Below, in pieces: positions 19,856 through 29,160 of a stretch of DNA of 49,617 nucleotides. Numbering within the stretch: position 1 is the first letter of the stretch; the number at the start of each line of letters is the position of its first letter. Both the position numbers and the translations under genes were made by a program. Source of the DNA: Bacillota bacterium (GTDB lineage: Bacteria; Bacillota; Proteinivoracia; UBA4975; VEMY01); NCBI GenBank assembly GCA_009711825.1, contig VEMY01000028.1, positions 1 to 49,617 on the forward strand, in the 5' to 3' direction. Under the pieces are notes generated by a model. The model was given only the letters and a program-made list of their open reading frames with translations, searched no databases and was not told the DNA's origin.

Positions 19856-20824
19856 GTGTGCAGGTATTTTAAAATTGTCACCTTGGGTGGTGACAAATAC
19901 TCGTCTTATTTAAAAGAGGAAATTGAACAAAAGGGAAGGGTCCATTTTGGCTGGGGGTGGCATGATCTAAGGCAACTGAAAAACTCCCAAAAGCTCAATG
20001 ACAGCGAGAAAGTTGTTTGGCGCTACTCCAAATTTATGTTAGAGAGGCTAAACAAAGGAGATCGCTTAGTTGTACAGTTTGAACGACCTCTAAGGAAGTT
20101 TATGATCGTCGAGGTTTCAGGTGAGTATGGCTACAATGATCCCCCAGGCGATGATTTTAATCATTTCAGACCATGTAGAACACTTACACCGTTAATTGAC
20201 ATTGACTCAGCCGTTGTGTCTCGCGCTCTTAGGCATGATTTATCAAAACGTGGGCATTATTACCAGATTTACAGTGAGGACACAATCCAGGAGCTGGATG
20301 AGTTAATCAAGGAAGAGAAGTGGAATGCTCCTCAGTACTCAGAGAAAAGAACGGTTGAAGCCGAGTGGGCAGATACCATAGAAACTGTAGTTCCGAGTAC
20401 ATTTGAGATAATAGGGCGTAAATGGAAGGCTACAAGCTTCGAGCAATTTGTGGCGAGGCTAGTAGAAAATATTCCCGGAATTGAGGTTTCACGTGCTGGC
20501 GATTCGCGAAAAGGGTGGGACATGCTAATACGTATTTTCGATCCACTCTCTGGAGAGATTATGTTTGATGAAGTGCCAGTGCAATGTAAAAACCATATTG
20601 GTATTGTGAATACTGAGCGACCTATCGAAGATTTGAAGAGATGCATAGAAAACTCTGGCAAAAGCATTGCATACCTATTCATTCTTGGGGATTTGCCAGA
20701 TCAGTTTACCTACAAAATAAATAATCTTCAACAGGCACTGACATCAAGGCTTAATCAGGAAATAAAGTTAGTTGTAGTTGACCAAGAACAGATAGCCAAA
20801 CTATTTATGCGATACTGGCAATAA
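19856..20824 (+). CDS. Probable type IV-like restriction nuclease: PUA-like sensor plus Mrr-type domain
   Basis: In this 322-residue protein residues 1-150 resemble a PUA/EVE-like base-sensing fold: GRVHFGWGWHDLRQL, then FMLERLNKGDRLVVQFERP. The C-terminal domain starts at TSFEQFVARLVENIPGIEV and has Mrr-type catalytic residues D222 (GWDMLIRI) and Q243-C-K245 (VPVQCKNHIG). A sensor plus nuclease architecture is typical of modification-dependent restriction enzymes. Translation starts at the GTG at 19856 behind GGAGGTG. It lies directly upstream of the type I RM genes but has its own terminator. The N-terminal domain assignment is tentative. Confidence 0.75.
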   Translation: MCRYFKIVTLGGDKYSSYLKEEIEQKGRVHFGWGWHDLRQLKNSQKLNDSEKVVWRYSKFMLERLNKGDRLVVQFERPLRKFMIVEVSGEYGYNDPPGDDFNHFRPCRTLTPLIDIDSAVVSRALRHDLSKRGHYYQIYSEDTIQELDELIKEEKWNAPQYSEKRTVEAEWADTIETVVPSTFEIIGRKWKATSFEQFVARLVENIPGIEVSRAGDSRKGWDMLIRIFDPLSGEIMFDEVPVQCKNHIGIVNTERPIEDLKRCIENSGKSIAYLFILGDLPDQFTYKINNLQQALTSRLNQEIKLVVVDQEQIAKLFMRYWQ

Positions 20825-20867: not shown

Positions 20868-20948
20868 GCTAGGTCGACCTGCAGGATTGACGCGCATTGT
20901 CGTAGAATCATGTTAAGATAGCTCAGTATTGTGACGGAGGGGAAGAGT

Positions 20949-22976
20949 ATGAACAATTTCAATGACAAGGTAAACTTTATCTGGACCATAGCGGAACTGC
21001 TAAGAGGACCATACAAGAAAGAGCAGTATGGCGATGTAGTACTGCCAATGGCGGTTCTCCGGCGTTTTGATTGTGTCTTGGAAGATACAAAGGAAGATGT
21101 TTTAAAGCGGTATGAGGCATTGAAAAAGACCAATCTGCAAAATATTGACCCTGTCCTCAACAGTGTGTCAAAGCAGCAGTTTAACAATACAAGCCCCTAC
21201 GATTTCCAAAAGCTTCTTGCAGAGCCAGATAACATTGCCAGTAACCTGAGGAATTACATAAATGGTTTCTCAAAGAATGCTCGGGAGATTATTGAGCATT
21301 TTGACTTCGATAAGCACATCACTAAGCTTGATGATAACGACTTGTTGTATCTTATCGTATCTAGATTCGCAGAGATTGATCTTCATCCTGAAGTGGTCAG
21401 CAACCTGGAAATGGGTTATGTATTCGAGGAGCTTATCCGTAGGTTCTCGGAACATGGTGAAGCAGGTGACCACTATACCCCCAGGGAAGTTATTAAGTTA
21501 ATGGTCAATATTCTCTTGAATGGAGCAAATGAGGATTTAACCATGCCTGGTAAGGTTACTACGGTCTATGACTGTGCCGCAGGTACTGGCGGCATGTTGA
21601 GTGTTGCAGAGCAATACCTTCGGGAGCTTAATCCTGATATCCAGGTTGAGGTATTTGGCCAGGAGCTAAACCCTCAGTCTTATGCTATCTGTAAGGCTGA
21701 TATGATGATAAAAGACCACAACGCCAATAATATTGTTCTTGGCGATTCATTTACGAAAGATGGCCACGCAGATGAGAAGTTCCGTTATATGCTGGTCAAC
21801 CCTCCATTTGGTGTGGAGTGGAAGAAGGCCCAGAAGTTTATTAAAGAAGAGCATGAGACCAAGGGTTATAACGGCCGGTTTGGGGCAGGCTTACCCCGGG
21901 TATCTGATGGCTCTTTGCTATTCCTGCAGCATCTTATTTCTAAGATGAAGGAAGATGAGCAGGGGAGCCGTATCGGTATCATTTTTAACGGCAGCCCTCT
22001 TTTTACTGGTGATGCTGGATCCGGTGAATCTGAGATCCGTCGTTGGATAATCGAAAATGATATGCTGGAAGGCATTATCGCCTTACCAGACCAGTTGTTT
22101 TACAACACTGGTATTTCAACCTATGTCTGGATAGTAACCAACCGAAAAAACAATGATCCCAAGAATGGACCGATCCGCACAGGCAGAGTTCAATTGGTTA
22201 ATGCCGTAGAATATTATCAAAAGATGCGCAAGAGCCTTGGGCATAAGCGCCATGAAATCTCTGAAGAGCAGATTAACGAAATATCTCGGATTTATGCAGA
22301 GTTTAAAGATGTCGAGAACTGTAAGATTTTTGATAATGATGATTTTGGCTTCCACAAGGTTGTTGTTGAAAGGCCTCTCAGGTTAAATTTCCAAGTAACC
22401 GAGGAACGAATAGAAAGAGTAAAAGCGGAACGTGCATTTGAAAACTTAGCTGCTTCTAGAAAGAAAGGTCAAGCTGGGCAACAAGAGATTGAAGAAGGAC
22501 AACAATTTCAGGAACAGATTCTTAACGTCTTATATTCTATGGATAGTTCAGTGGTATACAAAAATAGGGACGAGTTTACTAAGGTGTTGAAGAAAGCGTT
22601 TAAATCTGAGGAAGTAGTTTTATCTGCTCCTGTGCTAAAAGCAATCTTAAGTGCTCTGTCCGAGCGAGACGAGACCGCTGACATTTGCACTGATTCAAAA
22701 GGAAACCCTGAGCCAGATACTGAACTCAGGGATACTGAGAATGTCCCACTTAAGGAAGATATTCAGGAATACTTCAAAAGGGAAGTAAAGCCACATGTTC
22801 CTGACGCTTGGATTGATGAGTCTAAGACTAAGGTGGGCTACGAGATACCATTGACCAGGCATTTTTATAAGTATGAACCCCTTAGACCTTCAGAGGAAAT
22901 CATGGGTGAGATTAAGGAACTCGAAAAAGACATCCTGGCTAAAATCAGGAAGGTGATGGGCAATGGCGAAATATAA
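20949..22976 (+). CDS. hsdM: Type I restriction-modification system, modification subunit HsdM
   Basis: This 675-residue N6-adenine methyltransferase has an N-terminal HsdM helical domain (FIWTIAELLRGPYKKEQYGDV). The SAM-binding motif DCAAGTGGM is at D208, and the catalytic NPPF motif is at residues 284-287. The C-terminal extension (about 480-675) is helical and probably contacts HsdS. The ATG at 20949 follows GGAGGGG. It overlaps hsdS by 14 bases, and hsdR follows, so all three subunits of a type I system are present. With HsdS it methylates the recognition site; all three together cut unmodified DNA. Confidence 0.95.
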   Translation: MNNFNDKVNFIWTIAELLRGPYKKEQYGDVVLPMAVLRRFDCVLEDTKEDVLKRYEALKKTNLQNIDPVLNSVSKQQFNNTSPYDFQKLLAEPDNIASNLRNYINGFSKNAREIIEHFDFDKHITKLDDNDLLYLIVSRFAEIDLHPEVVSNLEMGYVFEELIRRFSEHGEAGDHYTPREVIKLMVNILLNGANEDLTMPGKVTTVYDCAAGTGGMLSVAEQYLRELNPDIQVEVFGQELNPQSYAICKADMMIKDHNANNIVLGDSFTKDGHADEKFRYMLVNPPFGVEWKKAQKFIKEEHETKGYNGRFGAGLPRVSDGSLLFLQHLISKMKEDEQGSRIGIIFNGSPLFTGDAGSGESEIRRWIIENDMLEGIIALPDQLFYNTGISTYVWIVTNRKNNDPKNGPIRTGRVQLVNAVEYYQKMRKSLGHKRHEISEEQINEISRIYAEFKDVENCKIFDNDDFGFHKVVVERPLRLNFQVTEERIERVKAERAFENLAASRKKGQAGQQEIEEGQQFQEQILNVLYSMDSSVVYKNRDEFTKVLKKAFKSEEVVLSAPVLKAILSALSERDETADICTDSKGNPEPDTELRDTENVPLKEDIQEYFKREVKPHVPDAWIDESKTKVGYEIPLTRHFYKYEPLRPSEEIMGEIKELEKDILAKIRKVMGNGEI

Positions 22977-24309
22977 GCCTTATGAGAAATATAAGGATTC
23001 AGGTATTGAGTGGATAGGGCAGGTGCCGGAGCATTGGGGGGAAACGAAAATAAAGCACATTGCCAAAATCAATAAAAGAGCACTTCCAGAAAGTACACCC
23101 AATGATTATATAATTGATTACGTTGACATCGGTAGTGTAACGCCAGAGGGTAAAGTAAATAGTGTGCAAACTGTCACCTTTGAAAAATCCCCTAGTCGGG
23201 CGCGAAGAATTATTCTAGATGGGGACACAATTGTATCAACCGTTAGAACTTACTTAAAAGCAATTACTTGGTTTGATAGTCCCCCGAAGAATTTAATATG
23301 CTCTACCGGTTTTGCAGTTTTATCACCTACCGATTCAATCAGCCCCAAGTTCCTGTTTCGTCTAATGCAGTCAGAGCCTTATATAAATGAAATTGTAAGT
23401 CGGTCTACAGGTGTTAGCTACCCTGCAATCAATGCCTCTGAAATAGGTCAATTCCTTTGCTATCTGCCACTCTTGGAAGAACAACAAGCCATCGCCAACT
23501 TCCTAGACCAAAAAACATCCGAAATAGATGCCCTTATAGCTGATAAAGAAAAGCTCATCAAGATATTACAGGAGTACAGGCAGTCAGTTATCAGTGAAGC
23601 AGTAACAAAGGGGCTTAACCCTGATGTAAAGATGAAGGATTCAGGTGTTGAGTGGATAGGGCAGGTGCCGGAGCATTGGAAGTCCAGAAAGCTTAAGCAC
23701 GTTATGAAGTTGGTGTATCGTTACCCAACATATTATGGGATATCATATCAATCAACAGGTGTTCTTGAAATTCGAGGAGAAATGCTTTCTGAAGATGGAA
23801 CGATTTGTACGAAATCATGCGAGCCAAGATATATTTCAGAAGAGACTGCAAGTAAATTTCCTCGAACAAAACTTGAGGTTGATGATATTGTTATGTCTGT
23901 ACGTGGAACAATGGGTAAGGTTGGGATAGTTACCTTGAAAGAAGAAGGAAGTAATATAACAGCAAATCTACTTAGGTTATCACCCGATACAAATGCTATA
24001 TATTCTCAATGGCTTATCAAGGTTCTCAGAAGCTTCAATTTTCACCAAGAACTTGATAACTGCTGTGATAAAACTACAATTCAAACCGTTAGGGTCCCTA
24101 AACTCCTAGATATTTATATTCCTTTTCCTTCTCTAGGAGAACAACAAGCCATTGCCAACTTCCTTGACCAAAAAACCTTTGAAATAGATGACCTTATAGC
24201 TGATATCCGAAACAGTATCGATTCCCTTAAGCATTATCGCCAGTCCCTGATATCCGAAGCAGTTACCGGAAAAATAGACGTCAGAGGATATGATAGTGAG
24301 GGACATTAA
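22963..24309 (+). CDS. hsdS: Type I restriction-modification system, specificity subunit HsdS
   Basis: This 448-residue protein has two target-recognition domains, each starting with the same segment (DSGIEWIGQVPEHW at about residue 11 and DSGVEWIGQVPEHW at about residue 226). Each ends with a conserved helical region (EQQAIANFLDQKT...EIDALIAD). The symmetrical arrangement sets the two half-sites of the bipartite DNA target. It overlaps hsdM. The conserved segments are also near-identical at DNA level (22995-23037 with 23637-23679; 23479-23545 with 24139-24205), which could permit domain exchange. Both recognition domains look intact. Confidence 0.95.
   Translation: MAKYKPYEKYKDSGIEWIGQVPEHWGETKIKHIAKINKRALPESTPNDYIIDYVDIGSVTPEGKVNSVQTVTFEKSPSRARRIILDGDTIVSTVRTYLKAITWFDSPPKNLICSTGFAVLSPTDSISPKFLFRLMQSEPYINEIVSRSTGVSYPAINASEIGQFLCYLPLLEEQQAIANFLDQKTSEIDALIADKEKLIKILQEYRQSVISEAVTKGLNPDVKMKDSGVEWIGQVPEHWKSRKLKHVMKLVYRYPTYYGISYQSTGVLEIRGEMLSEDGTICTKSCEPRYISEETASKFPRTKLEVDDIVMSVRGTMGKVGIVTLKEEGSNITANLLRLSPDTNAIYSQWLIKVLRSFNFHQELDNCCDKTTIQTVRVPKLLDIYIPFPSLGEQQAIANFLDQKTFEIDDLIADIRNSIDSLKHYRQSLISEAVTGKIDVRGYDSEGH
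22995..23037 (+). repeat. Direct repeat A1 inside hsdS
   Basis: This 43-bp segment matches 23637-23679 at 42 of 43 positions. It marks the start of the first target-recognition domain. Confidence 0.9.
23479..23545 (+). repeat. Direct repeat B1 inside hsdS
   Basis: This 67-bp segment matches 24139-24205 at about 61 of 67 positions. It encodes the conserved helix EQQAIANFLDQKT. Confidence 0.85.
23637..23679 (+). repeat. Direct repeat A2 inside hsdS
   Basis: This is the second copy of the 43-bp repeat at 22995. It marks the start of the second target-recognition domain. Confidence 0.9.
24139..24205 (+). repeat. Direct repeat B2 inside hsdS
   Basis: This is the second copy of the 67-bp repeat at 23479. 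It marks the conserved helix after the second target-recognition domain. Confidence 0.85.
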
Positions 24310-24442
24310 ATACTTAAGGCTTAACGACTCTTCCGTTTAGGAGCTTCCTGGCGGCGACTTATTACCATATGCTCTGATGACGATTTAGAGAGGGCTAAAC
24401 CACTATTGAAACAGAGCTATGAAGGTAACTAGGAGGGATCTT

Positions 24443-27421
24443 ATGCCAACTCCATCCAAGCCAACGGAAAAGGGATTTGAAACTCAAATCGAAGAGCATT
24501 TGCTTTCTCATGGCTATGTTTCTGGCAATCCTACGGACTTCAATCGAGACTTCGCCATGGATACTCGGCTACTGTTCGAGTTCTTGGAAGATACTCAGCC
24601 CGTGAAGATGCAGAAGCTCAAGGAGATCTATAAGGAACAGTATCAATTTAAGATTGTTCGTCGCCTTCATCAGGAATTGAATAATCGGGGCATGATTGAC
24701 GTTCTGCGCCACGGCATCAAAGACTATGGCGTTTATTTGGACCTAGCATTTTTTAAGCCGGCCACCAGTATGAATGTTGAGATGCTAGAGCTGTACCAGA
24801 AGAACCGAGTATCAGTTACTAGGCAGGTGCATTATAGCAATGTTAATGAAAACAGCGTGGACATGCTTCTATCTGTTAATGGTTTACCGGTAGTTATACT
24901 GGAGCTGAAAAACCAGTTTACTGATCAGAATGTTAATAACGCCATGCGGCAGTTTCAAAAGGACAGAGACCCCAAGGAAATGTTTTTCCAGTTTAAAAAA
25001 AGGGCAGTAGTTTTCTTTGCCGTTGACACTGATGAAGTGTATATGACCACCCGTTTGGCAGGGGACAGCACTTACTTTCTACCGTTCAACAAGGGATATA
25101 ATGGTGGCAAGGGTAACCCGCCAAATCCAAATGGATTCAAGACAGCATATCTATGGGAAGATATTCTTGAAAGAGACAGTCTGTTGGATATCCTGAAGCG
25201 CTTCGTTTATCTGGAGAAGGAAGAAAAGAAGGATGAGAACGGCAAGCAGTATATCTCTGAGACATTGATATTTCCCCGTTACCATCAGCTAGCTTCTGTA
25301 CGTGAGCTAGAGGCGGCTTCCCGCTCAGAAGGGGCTGGGAGCAGTTATCTGATTCAGCACAGTGCAGGGTCCGGGAAAACTAATTCAATCTCCTGGTTGG
25401 CACATCGATTATCCAGTCTGCATGATGAATCTGATAAACCTGTATTTGATACAGTGATTGTTATTACCGACCGTCTTGTTCTGGATCGGCAGCTACAGGA
25501 CAGCATATATCAGTTGGAGCATAAGCACGGCGTCGTTGAAAAGATAGACAAGGACTCTGATCAGCTTGCCTCTGCTCTTGCCGGGGGGACCCGGATAATC
25601 ATTTCCACACTGCAAAAGTTCTCCTTTATCCTAGAGAAGGTAGGGCAGTTGGGTGATCGTAAGTATGCGGTAATTATTGATGAGGCCCATTCCAGTGCTG
25701 CAGGCAAGCATGCAGCATCCCTGAGGGAGGTGCTTTCAGTCGGCAGTCTAGAAGAGGCAGCAAAAGCTGATGAAGAAGCTGAGGCTAAAGCGTATGACCC
25801 GGACGAGGAAATACTGGACTCTATCACTCGACAAGGTAGACAGGATAATATAAGTTACTTTGCTTTTACGGCGACACCGAAAGCAAGAACACTAGAGATG
25901 TTTGGCACTCCGGGCGACGATGGCAAGCCCAGGCCTTTTCATCTGTACTCCATGCGCCAGGCAATTGAGGAAGGATTTATCCTTGATGTCCTCAAGCATT
26001 ATGTCACCTACTCAGTCTATTACAAGCTGGCGAAGCGGATTAAGGATGACCCCAAGTTTGAAAAGGGTAAAGCGGCCAAAGCATTGGCCCGGTTTGTTAG
26101 TTTGCATCCCCATAACATTGCTCAGAAGACAGAAATTATGATAGAACATTTCCGACAGGTTACTCGGCATAAGGTTGGCGGGCGGGCCAAGGCAATGGTG
26201 GTTACAAGTTCCCGGTTGCATGCTGTGCGATACAAGCTGGCCTTTGATGAATATATCAAGCGCAAAGGTTACTTAGATATGAAGACTTTGGTCGCGTTTA
26301 CCGGCACTGTGGATGATGAAGGTGTCTCCTACACAGAAACAGATTTTAACCAGTTTAAAGAGGCGGAAGTGCCCGCTAAGTTTGCTACCGATGAATACCA
26401 GGTTTTGCTGGTTGCCGAGAAATACCAGACGGGTTTTGACCAGCCATTGCTACATACGATGTTTGTCGACAAGAAACTTTCGGGAGTAAAAGCGGTTCAG
26501 ACCCTTTCTCGGTTGAACAGAATCCATAAAGGGAAGAAGGATACCTTCATCCTTGATTTCGTAAACAAAGCAGAGGACATCCAGGAAGCTTTCCGTCCGT
26601 ATTATGAGCAGACAGTCGTTGAAGAAGTGACCGACCCAAATACCCTTTACGATCTTCAGCATGAGCTAGATAAGTTTGGCGTGTATATTGACGAAGAGTT
26701 GAGCAAATTTACTGAAGCATATTTCGACCAAGCCAACAAAAAGCGCGACGGTATTCTGAATTACTATATCGACAACGCTGTTAAGCGATTTTGGAGGTTG
26801 GATGATGAGTTCCAGGATGATTTTAATCACCTAGGCAAGAAGTTTGTGCGACTCTATTCCTTCCTTTTGCAGATTACACCCTTCAAAGACGTGGACCTTC
26901 ACAAGCTTTACTTGTTCTTAGACCTGTTGCTGCGGAAAACCAAGCGGGGGGCCGGAGGGCAGTCTTTGAATTTAGCTGATGAGGTGGAATTACAATATTA
27001 CACAAGCAAGAAGACTTTCGAAGGCGATCTGTCGATTAAAGAAGGCGATGGCACTGAGATACCTGGGGGGATACCGGGGGGAAGCGGCAAGAAAGAAGAT
27101 GAAGAGGAAGAACTGTCGGCAATCATTGACCGGCTGAATCAGCGGTTCGGGACCAATTTCACCAAGGCAGATATGATATCCACCGATCAGTTGATTGAGG
27201 ATTTTGCTGAGGATGAGGAGCTGACCCAGAAGGCACAAAATAATTCTATTGATGATTTCCGATTTGCATTCGAGAATGCGTTTCTCAATAAGGTGGTAGA
27301 GCGTATGGAACAAAATGAAGCCTTCTTCACCCGAATACTGGATGATGAAGACTTCAAAAATGCACTGGCTGATTATATGTTGGTGAGGACGTATAAGCGT
27401 TTGCGACAAAGTGCAGGATGA
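24443..27421 (+). CDS. hsdR: Type I restriction-modification system, restriction subunit HsdR
   Basis: This is a 992-residue endonuclease/translocase. The N-terminal PD-(D/E)xK nuclease is seen at VDMLLSV...VVILELKNQ (E and K near residues 152-154). The superfamily 2 motor follows: Walker A AGSGKTNS near 305-314, IIDEAH near 410, then FTATPKA and the C-terminal RecA-like lobe containing QTGFDQPLL and LSRLNRI. An acidic, glycine-rich linker lies near residue 870. The ATG at 24443 has AGGAGG 8 bases before it; the track-style start at 24419 has none. The 133-base gap after hsdS holds no gene. All motifs look intact, so the system should be active. Confidence 0.95.
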   Translation: MPTPSKPTEKGFETQIEEHLLSHGYVSGNPTDFNRDFAMDTRLLFEFLEDTQPVKMQKLKEIYKEQYQFKIVRRLHQELNNRGMIDVLRHGIKDYGVYLDLAFFKPATSMNVEMLELYQKNRVSVTRQVHYSNVNENSVDMLLSVNGLPVVILELKNQFTDQNVNNAMRQFQKDRDPKEMFFQFKKRAVVFFAVDTDEVYMTTRLAGDSTYFLPFNKGYNGGKGNPPNPNGFKTAYLWEDILERDSLLDILKRFVYLEKEEKKDENGKQYISETLIFPRYHQLASVRELEAASRSEGAGSSYLIQHSAGSGKTNSISWLAHRLSSLHDESDKPVFDTVIVITDRLVLDRQLQDSIYQLEHKHGVVEKIDKDSDQLASALAGGTRIIISTLQKFSFILEKVGQLGDRKYAVIIDEAHSSAAGKHAASLREVLSVGSLEEAAKADEEAEAKAYDPDEEILDSITRQGRQDNISYFAFTATPKARTLEMFGTPGDDGKPRPFHLYSMRQAIEEGFILDVLKHYVTYSVYYKLAKRIKDDPKFEKGKAAKALARFVSLHPHNIAQKTEIMIEHFRQVTRHKVGGRAKAMVVTSSRLHAVRYKLAFDEYIKRKGYLDMKTLVAFTGTVDDEGVSYTETDFNQFKEAEVPAKFATDEYQVLLVAEKYQTGFDQPLLHTMFVDKKLSGVKAVQTLSRLNRIHKGKKDTFILDFVNKAEDIQEAFRPYYEQTVVEEVTDPNTLYDLQHELDKFGVYIDEELSKFTEAYFDQANKKRDGILNYYIDNAVKRFWRLDDEFQDDFNHLGKKFVRLYSFLLQITPFKDVDLHKLYLFLDLLLRKTKRGAGGQSLNLADEVELQYYTSKKTFEGDLSIKEGDGTEIPGGIPGGSGKKEDEEEELSAIIDRLNQRFGTNFTKADMISTDQLIEDFAEDEELTQKAQNNSIDDFRFAFENAFLNKVVERMEQNEAFFTRILDDEDFKNALADYMLVRTYKRLRQSAG

Positions 27422-27471
27422 TTGAAATGGTAGCAGGATTTTGGCACACAGTATCGAAATAGTCTGTAAAT

Positions 27472-28944
27472 ATGTTTTGTGTGGTGAGTGGTGTGCCAAT
27501 TGTAAACCTTGATCACTTTGATTTTATAGATAAACCGGAAATAATATTTGGTTTGGTTGGTGCGGTGGGAACTCCGCTGAAACAAGTTACTCAGATTTTA
27601 AAAGAACAGATGGAAATAAGGGAATATTCTTCGGAAGAGATTGAGCTGAGTAAGTTTCTTTGTGAAAATTTACCTCTAAGAAGTTCGGTTTGTCATGATG
27701 GTGGCGAATATTCTCGGATTGATAGCATGATGAATCGCGGGAATGAGCTCCGGGAAAGAACAGATGGTGGCGAGGTGTTGTCTTTACTCGCTGCTGCAAA
27801 AATACATGTAAAAAGATCAGAGGACCACCTGTATCTCAATGGTCAATCCTTTATCTTACGCCAATTAAAGCATCCTGAAGAAGTGTTCTGCCTGAGGAGA
27901 ATATATGGTTCCTCGTTCCATTTGATAGGGGTATATTCTTCGGAAGCTTCCCGAAGACAAAACTTGCTGAAACAAGGAATGAGTTCTGACCAGGTTGACC
28001 GTATCTTCGCAAGGGACGAGGGCGAGGAATTATTGTATGGTCAACAATTACGGGACACTTATTACTTGGCAGACGTCTTTGTTGCTGATGGGCCACAGTT
28101 AGAAGGTCAGCTGCAGCGCTATTTAAAACTTCTTTTTGCGGAAGAGGTAATAACCCCTTCTGCAGATGAATACGGTATGCATTTATCTTATAGTGCATCG
28201 CTTAAGTCGGGCGACCTGTCCAGACAAGTTGGTGCGGCCATATTGAATGAACATAGGGAAGTTATCTCTCTAGGAGCAAATGAGGTTCCTGCACCAATGG
28301 GAGGGCAATACTGGGAAGATTCGCCACTAGATTCTCGCGATTGTAGAAAAGGATATGACTCTAACGCTAAGATAAAAAGAGAAATAGTGGAAGATATAAT
28401 TAAAGCCCTCCAGCTGTCGGACGATGTAGAGCAAGTATCTTACAAATTAAAAAACACTCGGTTAATGGATATCACGGAATTTGGAAGATGTGTCCATGCT
28501 GAGATGGAGTCAATATTAGGAGCTGGAAGGGTGGGGATATCCTGTAGACAAGGCACCCTATATACAACGACATTTCCATGCCATAATTGTGCCAAACACA
28601 TTGTTAATGCGGGGTTACAACGCGTAGTATATATTGAGCCTTACCCCAAGAGCATGGCCAAGGATTTACATGACGATGCAATTGCCTTTACTGAAGATGG
28701 GGAAGGCGAAGAAACCGAAAAAGTAATCTTTGAGCCTTTTGTGGGTGTTGCTCCACGAAAATATTGGATTTTATTCTCCATTTATACTGCTGATGGCAGG
28801 CGGTTAAAAAGAAAAGATGACGAAGGAAATTTGGTGGATACGCCTTTGGGCTTGCGCCTTGCAACTTCCACTTTGACCTATATCGAAAGGGAAAGAGTGG
28901 TTGCCGCTGCTGTATCAAGAATAAAAGAGCTCTTACTAAAGTGA
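27472..28944 (+). CDS. Anti-phage dCTP deaminase (AvcD-like) with P-loop N-terminal domain
   Basis: In this 490-residue protein a P-loop kinase-like region starts at IIFGLVGAVGT (G27-x-x-G30-A-V-G33-T34). A C-terminal zinc deaminase carries H342-A-E344 and P369-C370-x-x-C373. This architecture defines the anti-phage dCTP/dCMP deaminase family, which drains the deoxycytidine nucleotide pool during phage infection. The ATG at 27472 lacks a good ribosome binding site; GTG at 27493 is an alternative. It follows hsdR by only 50 bases, which leaves no room for a long upstream antitoxin RNA like that of Vibrio AvcI. A 50-codon ORF follows it. Confidence 0.85.
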   Translation: MFCVVSGVPIVNLDHFDFIDKPEIIFGLVGAVGTPLKQVTQILKEQMEIREYSSEEIELSKFLCENLPLRSSVCHDGGEYSRIDSMMNRGNELRERTDGGEVLSLLAAAKIHVKRSEDHLYLNGQSFILRQLKHPEEVFCLRRIYGSSFHLIGVYSSEASRRQNLLKQGMSSDQVDRIFARDEGEELLYGQQLRDTYYLADVFVADGPQLEGQLQRYLKLLFAEEVITPSADEYGMHLSYSASLKSGDLSRQVGAAILNEHREVISLGANEVPAPMGGQYWEDSPLDSRDCRKGYDSNAKIKREIVEDIIKALQLSDDVEQVSYKLKNTRLMDITEFGRCVHAEMESILGAGRVGISCRQGTLYTTTFPCHNCAKHIVNAGLQRVVYIEPYPKSMAKDLHDDAIAFTEDGEGEETEKVIFEPFVGVAPRKYWILFSIYTADGRRLKRKDDEGNLVDTPLGLRLATSTLTYIERERVVAAAVSRIKELLLK

Positions 28945-28966
28945 GTATTTGGGAGGAGTGAGATTT

Positions 28967-29119
28967 ATGAATAGAGAGAGCACTTTAAAGTGGGTAGAAA
29001 CTGAGGAGTCGAAGCACTTTTGGGAGCAAATCGAGCAGGCAGCATCGAAAGCACCTAGAGAAATTGTTGAAAAGATAATTGAAGATATTGACCAAAAAAT
29101 GCAATCTAAAAAGGATTAG
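28967..29119 (+). CDS. Small protein downstream of the deaminase (50 residues)
   Basis: This short ORF has a strong ribosome binding site (GGGAGGAG) 8 bases before its ATG. It encodes a charged, helical soluble protein (LKWVETEESKHFWEQIEQ, then PREIVEKIIEDIDQKM and a lysine-rich end). It starts 22 bases after the deaminase stop and precedes a terminator, so it is almost certainly co-transcribed with the deaminase. I recognise no family. A role in controlling or sensing for the deaminase is possible but is inferred only from position. Confidence 0.7.
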   Translation: MNRESTLKWVETEESKHFWEQIEQAASKAPREIVEKIIEDIDQKMQSKKD

Positions 29120-29132
29120 GTATGATTATTTA

Positions 29133-29160
29133 TAACTGTCATTCGGCAGTTATTTCTTTA
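29133..29160 (+). terminator. Terminator after the deaminase/small ORF unit
   Basis: TAACTGTC pairs with GGCAGTTA (8 bp with one G-U pair) around ATTC, followed by TTTCTTTA. Confidence 0.65.

What the first reader, a model, noticed from the sequence alone, without database searches (positions are those of the whole stretch)
27472..29119. AvcD-like anti-phage deaminase paired with an unannotated 50-codon gene
The deaminase has the P-loop plus HAE/PCxxC architecture of anti-phage dCTP deaminases. Only 50 bases separate it from hsdR, so a Vibrio-type upstream antitoxin RNA does not fit. A small ORF with a strong ribosome binding site follows in the same transcript. It may be the missing regulator, giving a protein-controlled variant.
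Basis: partly seen in the sequence, partly recalled or inferred. Interest (0 to 1): 0.8.

Follow-up and report, generated by a model that had tools for sequence, protein, structure and literature searches.

The report
Anti-phage deaminase with small protein partner
The gene is an anti-phage enzyme that destroys a DNA building block, and the tiny gene behind it is a real partner that follows the same enzyme in about ten bacterial phyla, so a large branch of this defence family probably has a protein regulator where only an RNA regulator was known.

Summary
Window 27472-28944 is an anti-phage dCTP deaminase (NF041025, above its cut-off). A 50-codon ORF with a GGAGG site follows at 28967-29119. 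Most share an invariant W-P-x-W motif; the window belongs to a four-member clade with a divergent version. The small ORF is under purifying selection and is fused to the deaminase in Methylocucumis. In 30 whole genomes its profile finds essentially only deaminase neighbours, including two second deaminases found blind. A separate AvcID-like clade lacks the downstream ORF, and another has an N-terminal domain instead. Pfam, NCBIfam, PADLOC and the PDB do not know the family, and no open paper found describes it. Unexpectedly, phage proteins without any deaminase carry the same module, which suggests phage-encoded mimics. That the small protein inhibits the enzyme is inference: structure prediction did not settle docking, and nothing was tested at the bench. 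I file it as a new, protein-partnered variant of a known defence family. The partnership is near certain; an antitoxin role is likely but unproven.

The parts
24419..27421 (+). hsdR, type I restriction subunit; upstream neighbour (hsdM about 20946-22976 and hsdS 22963-24309 before it)
   Evidence: Pfam HSDR_N, SWI2_SNF2; PADLOC REase_I, MTase_I, Specificity_I
27422..27471 (+). 50-nt gap between hsdR and the deaminase; no room for an upstream antitoxin gene
   Evidence: sequence; no Rfam match; fold z-score -0.31
27472..28944 (+). anti-phage dCTP deaminase, 490 aa (true start may be GTG 27493)
   Evidence: NF041025 434.5 bits, cut-off 400; PADLOC dCTPase E 3.8e-157; Pfam dCMP_cyt_deam_1
28495..28503 (+). 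HAE catalytic motif (residues 342-344)
   Evidence: invariant in 39 aligned homologues
28576..28590 (+). PCHNC zinc-binding motif (residues 369-373)
28950..28957 (+). Shine-Dalgarno-like sequence (gggaggag) of the small ORF
   Evidence: sequence
28967..29119 (+). small partner protein, 50 aa, divergent member of the WPxWK partner family
   Evidence: conserved position in 65 of 94 homologous loci; beats 1000/1000 shuffles against L013 and L014; hhalign to the WPxWK profile E 0.011
29132..29153 (+). terminator-like hairpin directly behind the small ORF (number found not above chance)
   Evidence: 1 found, shuffles mean 1.7

Best explanation
A two-gene anti-phage module. The first gene is a dCTP deaminase (P-loop-kinase-like N-half, dCMP-deaminase-like C-half) that, when active, drains deoxycytidine nucleotides and starves phage DNA synthesis (inferred from characterised relatives). 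The second gene, directly behind it, makes a roughly 50-aa two-helix protein of a family defined here (WPxWK family; the window's copy is divergent) that acts on the deaminase, most likely by binding and holding it inactive until infection (inferred). This branch would be a protein-controlled counterpart of the RNA-controlled AvcID system. Shown: identity of the enzyme; conservation, coding nature and specificity of the partner; a natural fusion. Inferred: binding, inhibition, trigger.
For: Family assignment. 65 of 94 homologous deaminases carry the ORF; the label needs 6 changes on the tree against 25.1 when shuffled. Starts overlap or abut the deaminase stop, often ATGA, with ribosome sites of their own and in all three relative frames. 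WPxW invariant in 30 aligned partners. pN/pS 0.12-0.49 in nine groups. Specificity in 30 whole genomes: one strong hit each, and two extra hits turned out to lie behind a second deaminase. Natural C-terminal fusion in Methylocucumis, L088. Distances of the two proteins covary, Mantel r 0.62, 0 of 2000 permutations. Window copy linked by clade-mates. Phage-encoded copies fit an inhibitor that phages would gain from carrying.
Against: No assay. Docking undecided: the tail is confident in the fusion (pLDDT 93-94) but nearly as confident alone (89-92). A permanent fusion is also what an activator or sensor subunit would look like. The window's own copy lacks WPxW, and the WPxWK profile alone does not pick it out. 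Co-variation and fusion show partnership, not the sign of the effect.
Confidence: 0.6

Rival explanations
1. The small protein is a required activator or phage-sensing subunit, not an inhibitor: it links a phage signal to the deaminase.
For: Natural fusion to the deaminase C-terminus and tight co-conservation fit an obligatory subunit; enzyme-first gene order.
Against: Two related clades do without it (15-member N-domain clade, AvcID-like clade), so the chemistry does not need it. Stand-alone copies in phages are harder to explain if the protein switches the defence on.
Confidence: 0.25
2. WPxWK is a general docking module for some host or phage factor; both the deaminase partner and phage proteins use it, and it tethers the enzyme there without controlling activity.
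For: Module occurs in several unrelated phage protein contexts and anonymous PHROGs 38465, 29728, 30995.
Against: In 30 bacterial genomes it is essentially confined to deaminase neighbours.
Confidence: 0.12
3. The window's small ORF is a chance or decaying ORF; the real regulator is RNA or absent.
For: It lacks WPxW and scores within shuffles against the WPxWK profile; a decayed copy with a stop exists elsewhere.
Against: Same position, strong ribosome site, intact frame, and similarity to three clade-mates beyond shuffles. No RNA signal upstream.
Confidence: 0.03

Closest known systems
AvcID (AvcD deaminase + AvcI RNA antitoxin), type III toxin-antitoxin of Vibrio and E. coli (PMC10511110; PMC12409362)
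   Same: Homologous dC deaminase as effector; a small regulator encoded next to it
   Different: Here the partner is a protein encoded downstream; AvcI is an RNA (encoded upstream, from my own knowledge). The presumed AvcID-like clade is separate on the tree and lacks the downstream ORF
Anti-phage dCTP deaminases, NF041025 / PADLOC dCTPase (single-gene model)
   Same: Full-length family match above curated cut-off
   Different: The library entry names one gene; a conserved second gene is found here
Type II toxin-antitoxin systems and phage antitoxin mimics such as the one countering DarTG (PMC11481870)
   Same: Small protein next to a harmful enzyme; phage copies of the small protein
   Different: No neutralisation shown; the small family has no convincing match in the protein-family, defence or PDB libraries

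Membership tests
Anti-phage dCTP deaminase (NF041025) | Whole-protein score above curated cut-off | tested here: met
   434.5 bits against 400
Anti-phage dCTP deaminase (NF041025) | HAE and PCxxC zinc-deaminase motifs | tested here: met
   residues 342 and 369; invariant
Anti-phage dCTP deaminase (NF041025) | P-loop-kinase-like N-terminal domain | tested here: met
   fold matches 3h0k and 3lw7 on the homologue L088 model; Walker A lysine absent
Anti-phage dCTP deaminase (NF041025) | Deaminates dCTP/dCMP and protects from phage | not testable with these tools
   bench assay needed
AvcID type III toxin-antitoxin | Antitoxin RNA gene directly upstream of the deaminase | tested here: not met
   50-nt gap after hsdR, no Rfam match, no unusual fold; an RNA embedded in hsdR cannot be excluded
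AvcID type III toxin-antitoxin | Deaminase falls in the AvcID-like clade | tested here: not met
   separate clades; the clade's identity with AvcID is inferred, since the characterised AvcD sequences were not placed on the tree
WPxWK small partner family (defined here) | Short ORF directly behind a dCTP deaminase, same strand | tested here: met
   22-nt gap
WPxWK small partner family (defined here) | WPxW motif | tested here: not met
   window has KAPREI at that place; the whole four-member clade lacks the first W
WPxWK small partner family (defined here) | Sequence homology to members | tested here: met
   chain window-L013/L014 (0/1000 shuffles), L015-L026 (0/1000); hhalign E 0.011
Type II toxin-antitoxin | Small protein binds and neutralises the enzyme | not testable with these tools
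   AF2 fusion model against tail-alone control not discriminating

The most novel reading that the evidence does not exclude
Anti-phage dCTP deaminases are controlled mainly by small proteins: a WPxWK-family lock in most lineages, and in the AvcID-like clade an upstream-encoded 56-62 aa protein that always ends in tryptophan. Phages (jumbo phage Kaldavass, T5-like KEY and AAS21, phiTE, Peat1) carry stolen WPxWK copies as counter-defence.
Probability: 0.3. Interest if true: 0.85.

Novelty: new variant of a known kind. Interest (0 to 1): 0.7.

Why it matters
How nucleotide-depleting defences are kept quiet is open outside the few RNA-controlled AvcID systems. A small protein family across about ten phyla, with a natural fusion and phage copies, gives a directly testable answer. 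It also means that deaminases of this branch cloned without the second gene may have been tested as incomplete systems.

Tried and rejected
AF2 of the natural fusion against the tail alone: not discriminating, so docking is not claimed. Upstream antitoxin RNA: no Rfam match, fold z -0.31. Programmed frameshift making one long protein: rejected, because the small ORFs lie in all three relative frames with their own starts. Searching the window's small protein directly in relatives or plasmids found nothing convincing: it is too divergent and short, which is why synteny was needed. A viral scan with the WPxWK alignment failed for lack of a conserved stretch; a degenerate DNA pattern was used instead.

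Full report
1. What is there. The coordinates are right. The 490-aa protein passes the NCBIfam equivalog 'anti-phage dCTP deaminase' (434.5 bits, cut-off 400) and matches the PADLOC dCTPase model (E 3.8e-157), and has HAE and PCHNC. It lies directly behind a type I restriction operon. The start may be GTG 27493 rather than ATG 27472, by comparison with L014 and L015. No Walker A motif exists; a fold search with the model of a homologue finds dCMP deaminases for one half and adenylate-kinase-like P-loop proteins for the other.

2. Is the small ORF conserved? Direct searches with the 50-aa protein find nothing convincing. I therefore fetched deaminase homologues and read the DNA behind each. Nearly every locus outside two clades has a short ORF, mostly 46-80 aa, starting between about -29 and +10 of the deaminase stop (one at +102), often as ATGA overlap, usually with a ribosome site. 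Most share the pattern F...A...V..WP.WK; W, P and W are invariant in 30 aligned members and K nearly so. The relative frame takes all three values, so this is a gene, not a readthrough tail.

3. Distribution. On a tree of 94 deaminases, 65 carry the ORF, and the label needs 6 changes against 25.1 in shuffles. The window sits in a supported clade (99% SH-aLRT) with a Bacillota, a Verrucomicrobiota and a Gemmatimonadota sequence, all with a divergent partner (W..AA...P). Two supported clades lack it: six sequences from E. coli, Klebsiella, Photobacterium and Vibrio plasmids and a phage record (AvcID-like by my reading), and fifteen nearly all with an extra N-terminal domain. L077, scored as lacking the ORF in the tree, has a variant with RPQWQK, so 65 is slightly conservative.

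4. Is it coding and specific? pN/pS is 0.12-0.49 in nine groups. With the partner profile, 30 whole genomes give one strong match each, at the deaminase, 14 of them not used to build the profile. Of three further matches below 1e-3, two lie directly behind a second deaminase in the same genome (L236, L237), which was not known when the search was made; the third is in a prophage-like gene of Cohnella. Partner and enzyme distances correlate (Mantel r 0.62, 0 of 2000 permutations); this shows co-inheritance, not binding.

5. The window's own copy. Its membership rests on position, on clade-mates (0/1000 shuffles against L013 and L014, 2/1000 against L015), and on the clade-mate L015 matching L026 of the WPxWK family (0/1000); hhalign between the two groups gives E 0.011. 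The WPxWK profile alone does not separate it from shuffles, so for this copy the family link is indirect.

6. Fusion and structure. In Methylocucumis oryzae the module is fused to the C-terminus of the deaminase (L088). AF2 of this natural fusion is confident (pLDDT 93, pTM 0.92; tail 93-94), but the tail alone, as two helices joined at WPxW, is almost as confident (89-92). I therefore claim the two-helix shape, not the docking.

7. Phages carry it too. Erwinia phage Kaldavass, phage 15G, the T5-like phages KEY and AAS21, phiTE and Peat1 encode the module with no deaminase annotated beside it where annotation exists, as do about ten IMG/VR contigs and three anonymous PHROGs. In Peat1 the gene is within the first 1.4 kb of the genome, an early region where counter-defence genes are common in this phage group (my own knowledge). 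This fits phage-encoded antitoxin mimics, as known for DarTG (PMC11481870), but is inference.

8. Mechanism. Characterised relatives drain dCTP/dCMP during infection and, in AvcID, are held inactive by an RNA (PMC10511110; PMC12409362). The window's enzyme has 50 nt upstream with no RNA signal and a partner protein downstream. The most likely reading is a protein inhibitor lost, displaced or not replenished on infection; an activating or sensing subunit is the main rival.

9. Known or new. No Pfam, NCBIfam, PADLOC or PDB entry convincingly covers the small family, and no paper in the open library that I found describes it. Subscription papers were outside that library, and the two original 2022 reports were not read. 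In E. coli the small gene is annotated as a hypothetical protein (WP_000021256.1).

Noticed in passing
L242 (Kaldavass) 801-917; L114 (KEY) 1812-2288; L115 1312-1788; L241 (phiTE) 639-917; L240 (Peat1) 585-911; L243: Phage proteins without a neighbouring deaminase carry the WPxWK module, in Kaldavass as a stand-alone 38-codon gene: candidate deaminase inhibitors.
   Followed up: partly
L103:2648-2818, L104:705-887, L105:2736-2921, L106:124-306, L108:857-1027, L110:2671-2844, L113:1555-1743: All seven AvcID-like loci have an upstream 56-62 aa ORF that always ends in Trp, where the literature reports an RNA (AvcI); pN/pS mostly 0.5-0.9, so coding is likely but not proven.
   Followed up: partly
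L056, L059, L060, L069-L071, L076, L082, L084, L086, L090, L091 and others (about 590 aa): A clade of 15 deaminases mostly has a conserved N-terminal domain (..F.GS.EEL...GG.WDESQPNKKVLRLNGGVMNWFESTG..) and no small partner: perhaps a built-in regulator.
   Followed up: no
L238:1552-2325 (-): Cohnella panacarvi prophage-like gene with WPDWKKAVY, identical over nine residues to the same genome's deaminase partner (L089).
   Followed up: no
L111:1841-3536: E. coli P4-like satellite carries the deaminase + WPxWK pair beside its integrase; a convenient laboratory model.
   Followed up: no
L246 about 2232-2312: Decayed copy of a window-type small ORF (stop inside) with no deaminase match within 4.5 kb, in the genome that also holds the L015 pair.
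   Followed up: no
window 19856-20824: Mrr-like / PDC-S02-like gene (weak matches) next to the type I restriction operon: the region looks like a defence island.
   Followed up: no
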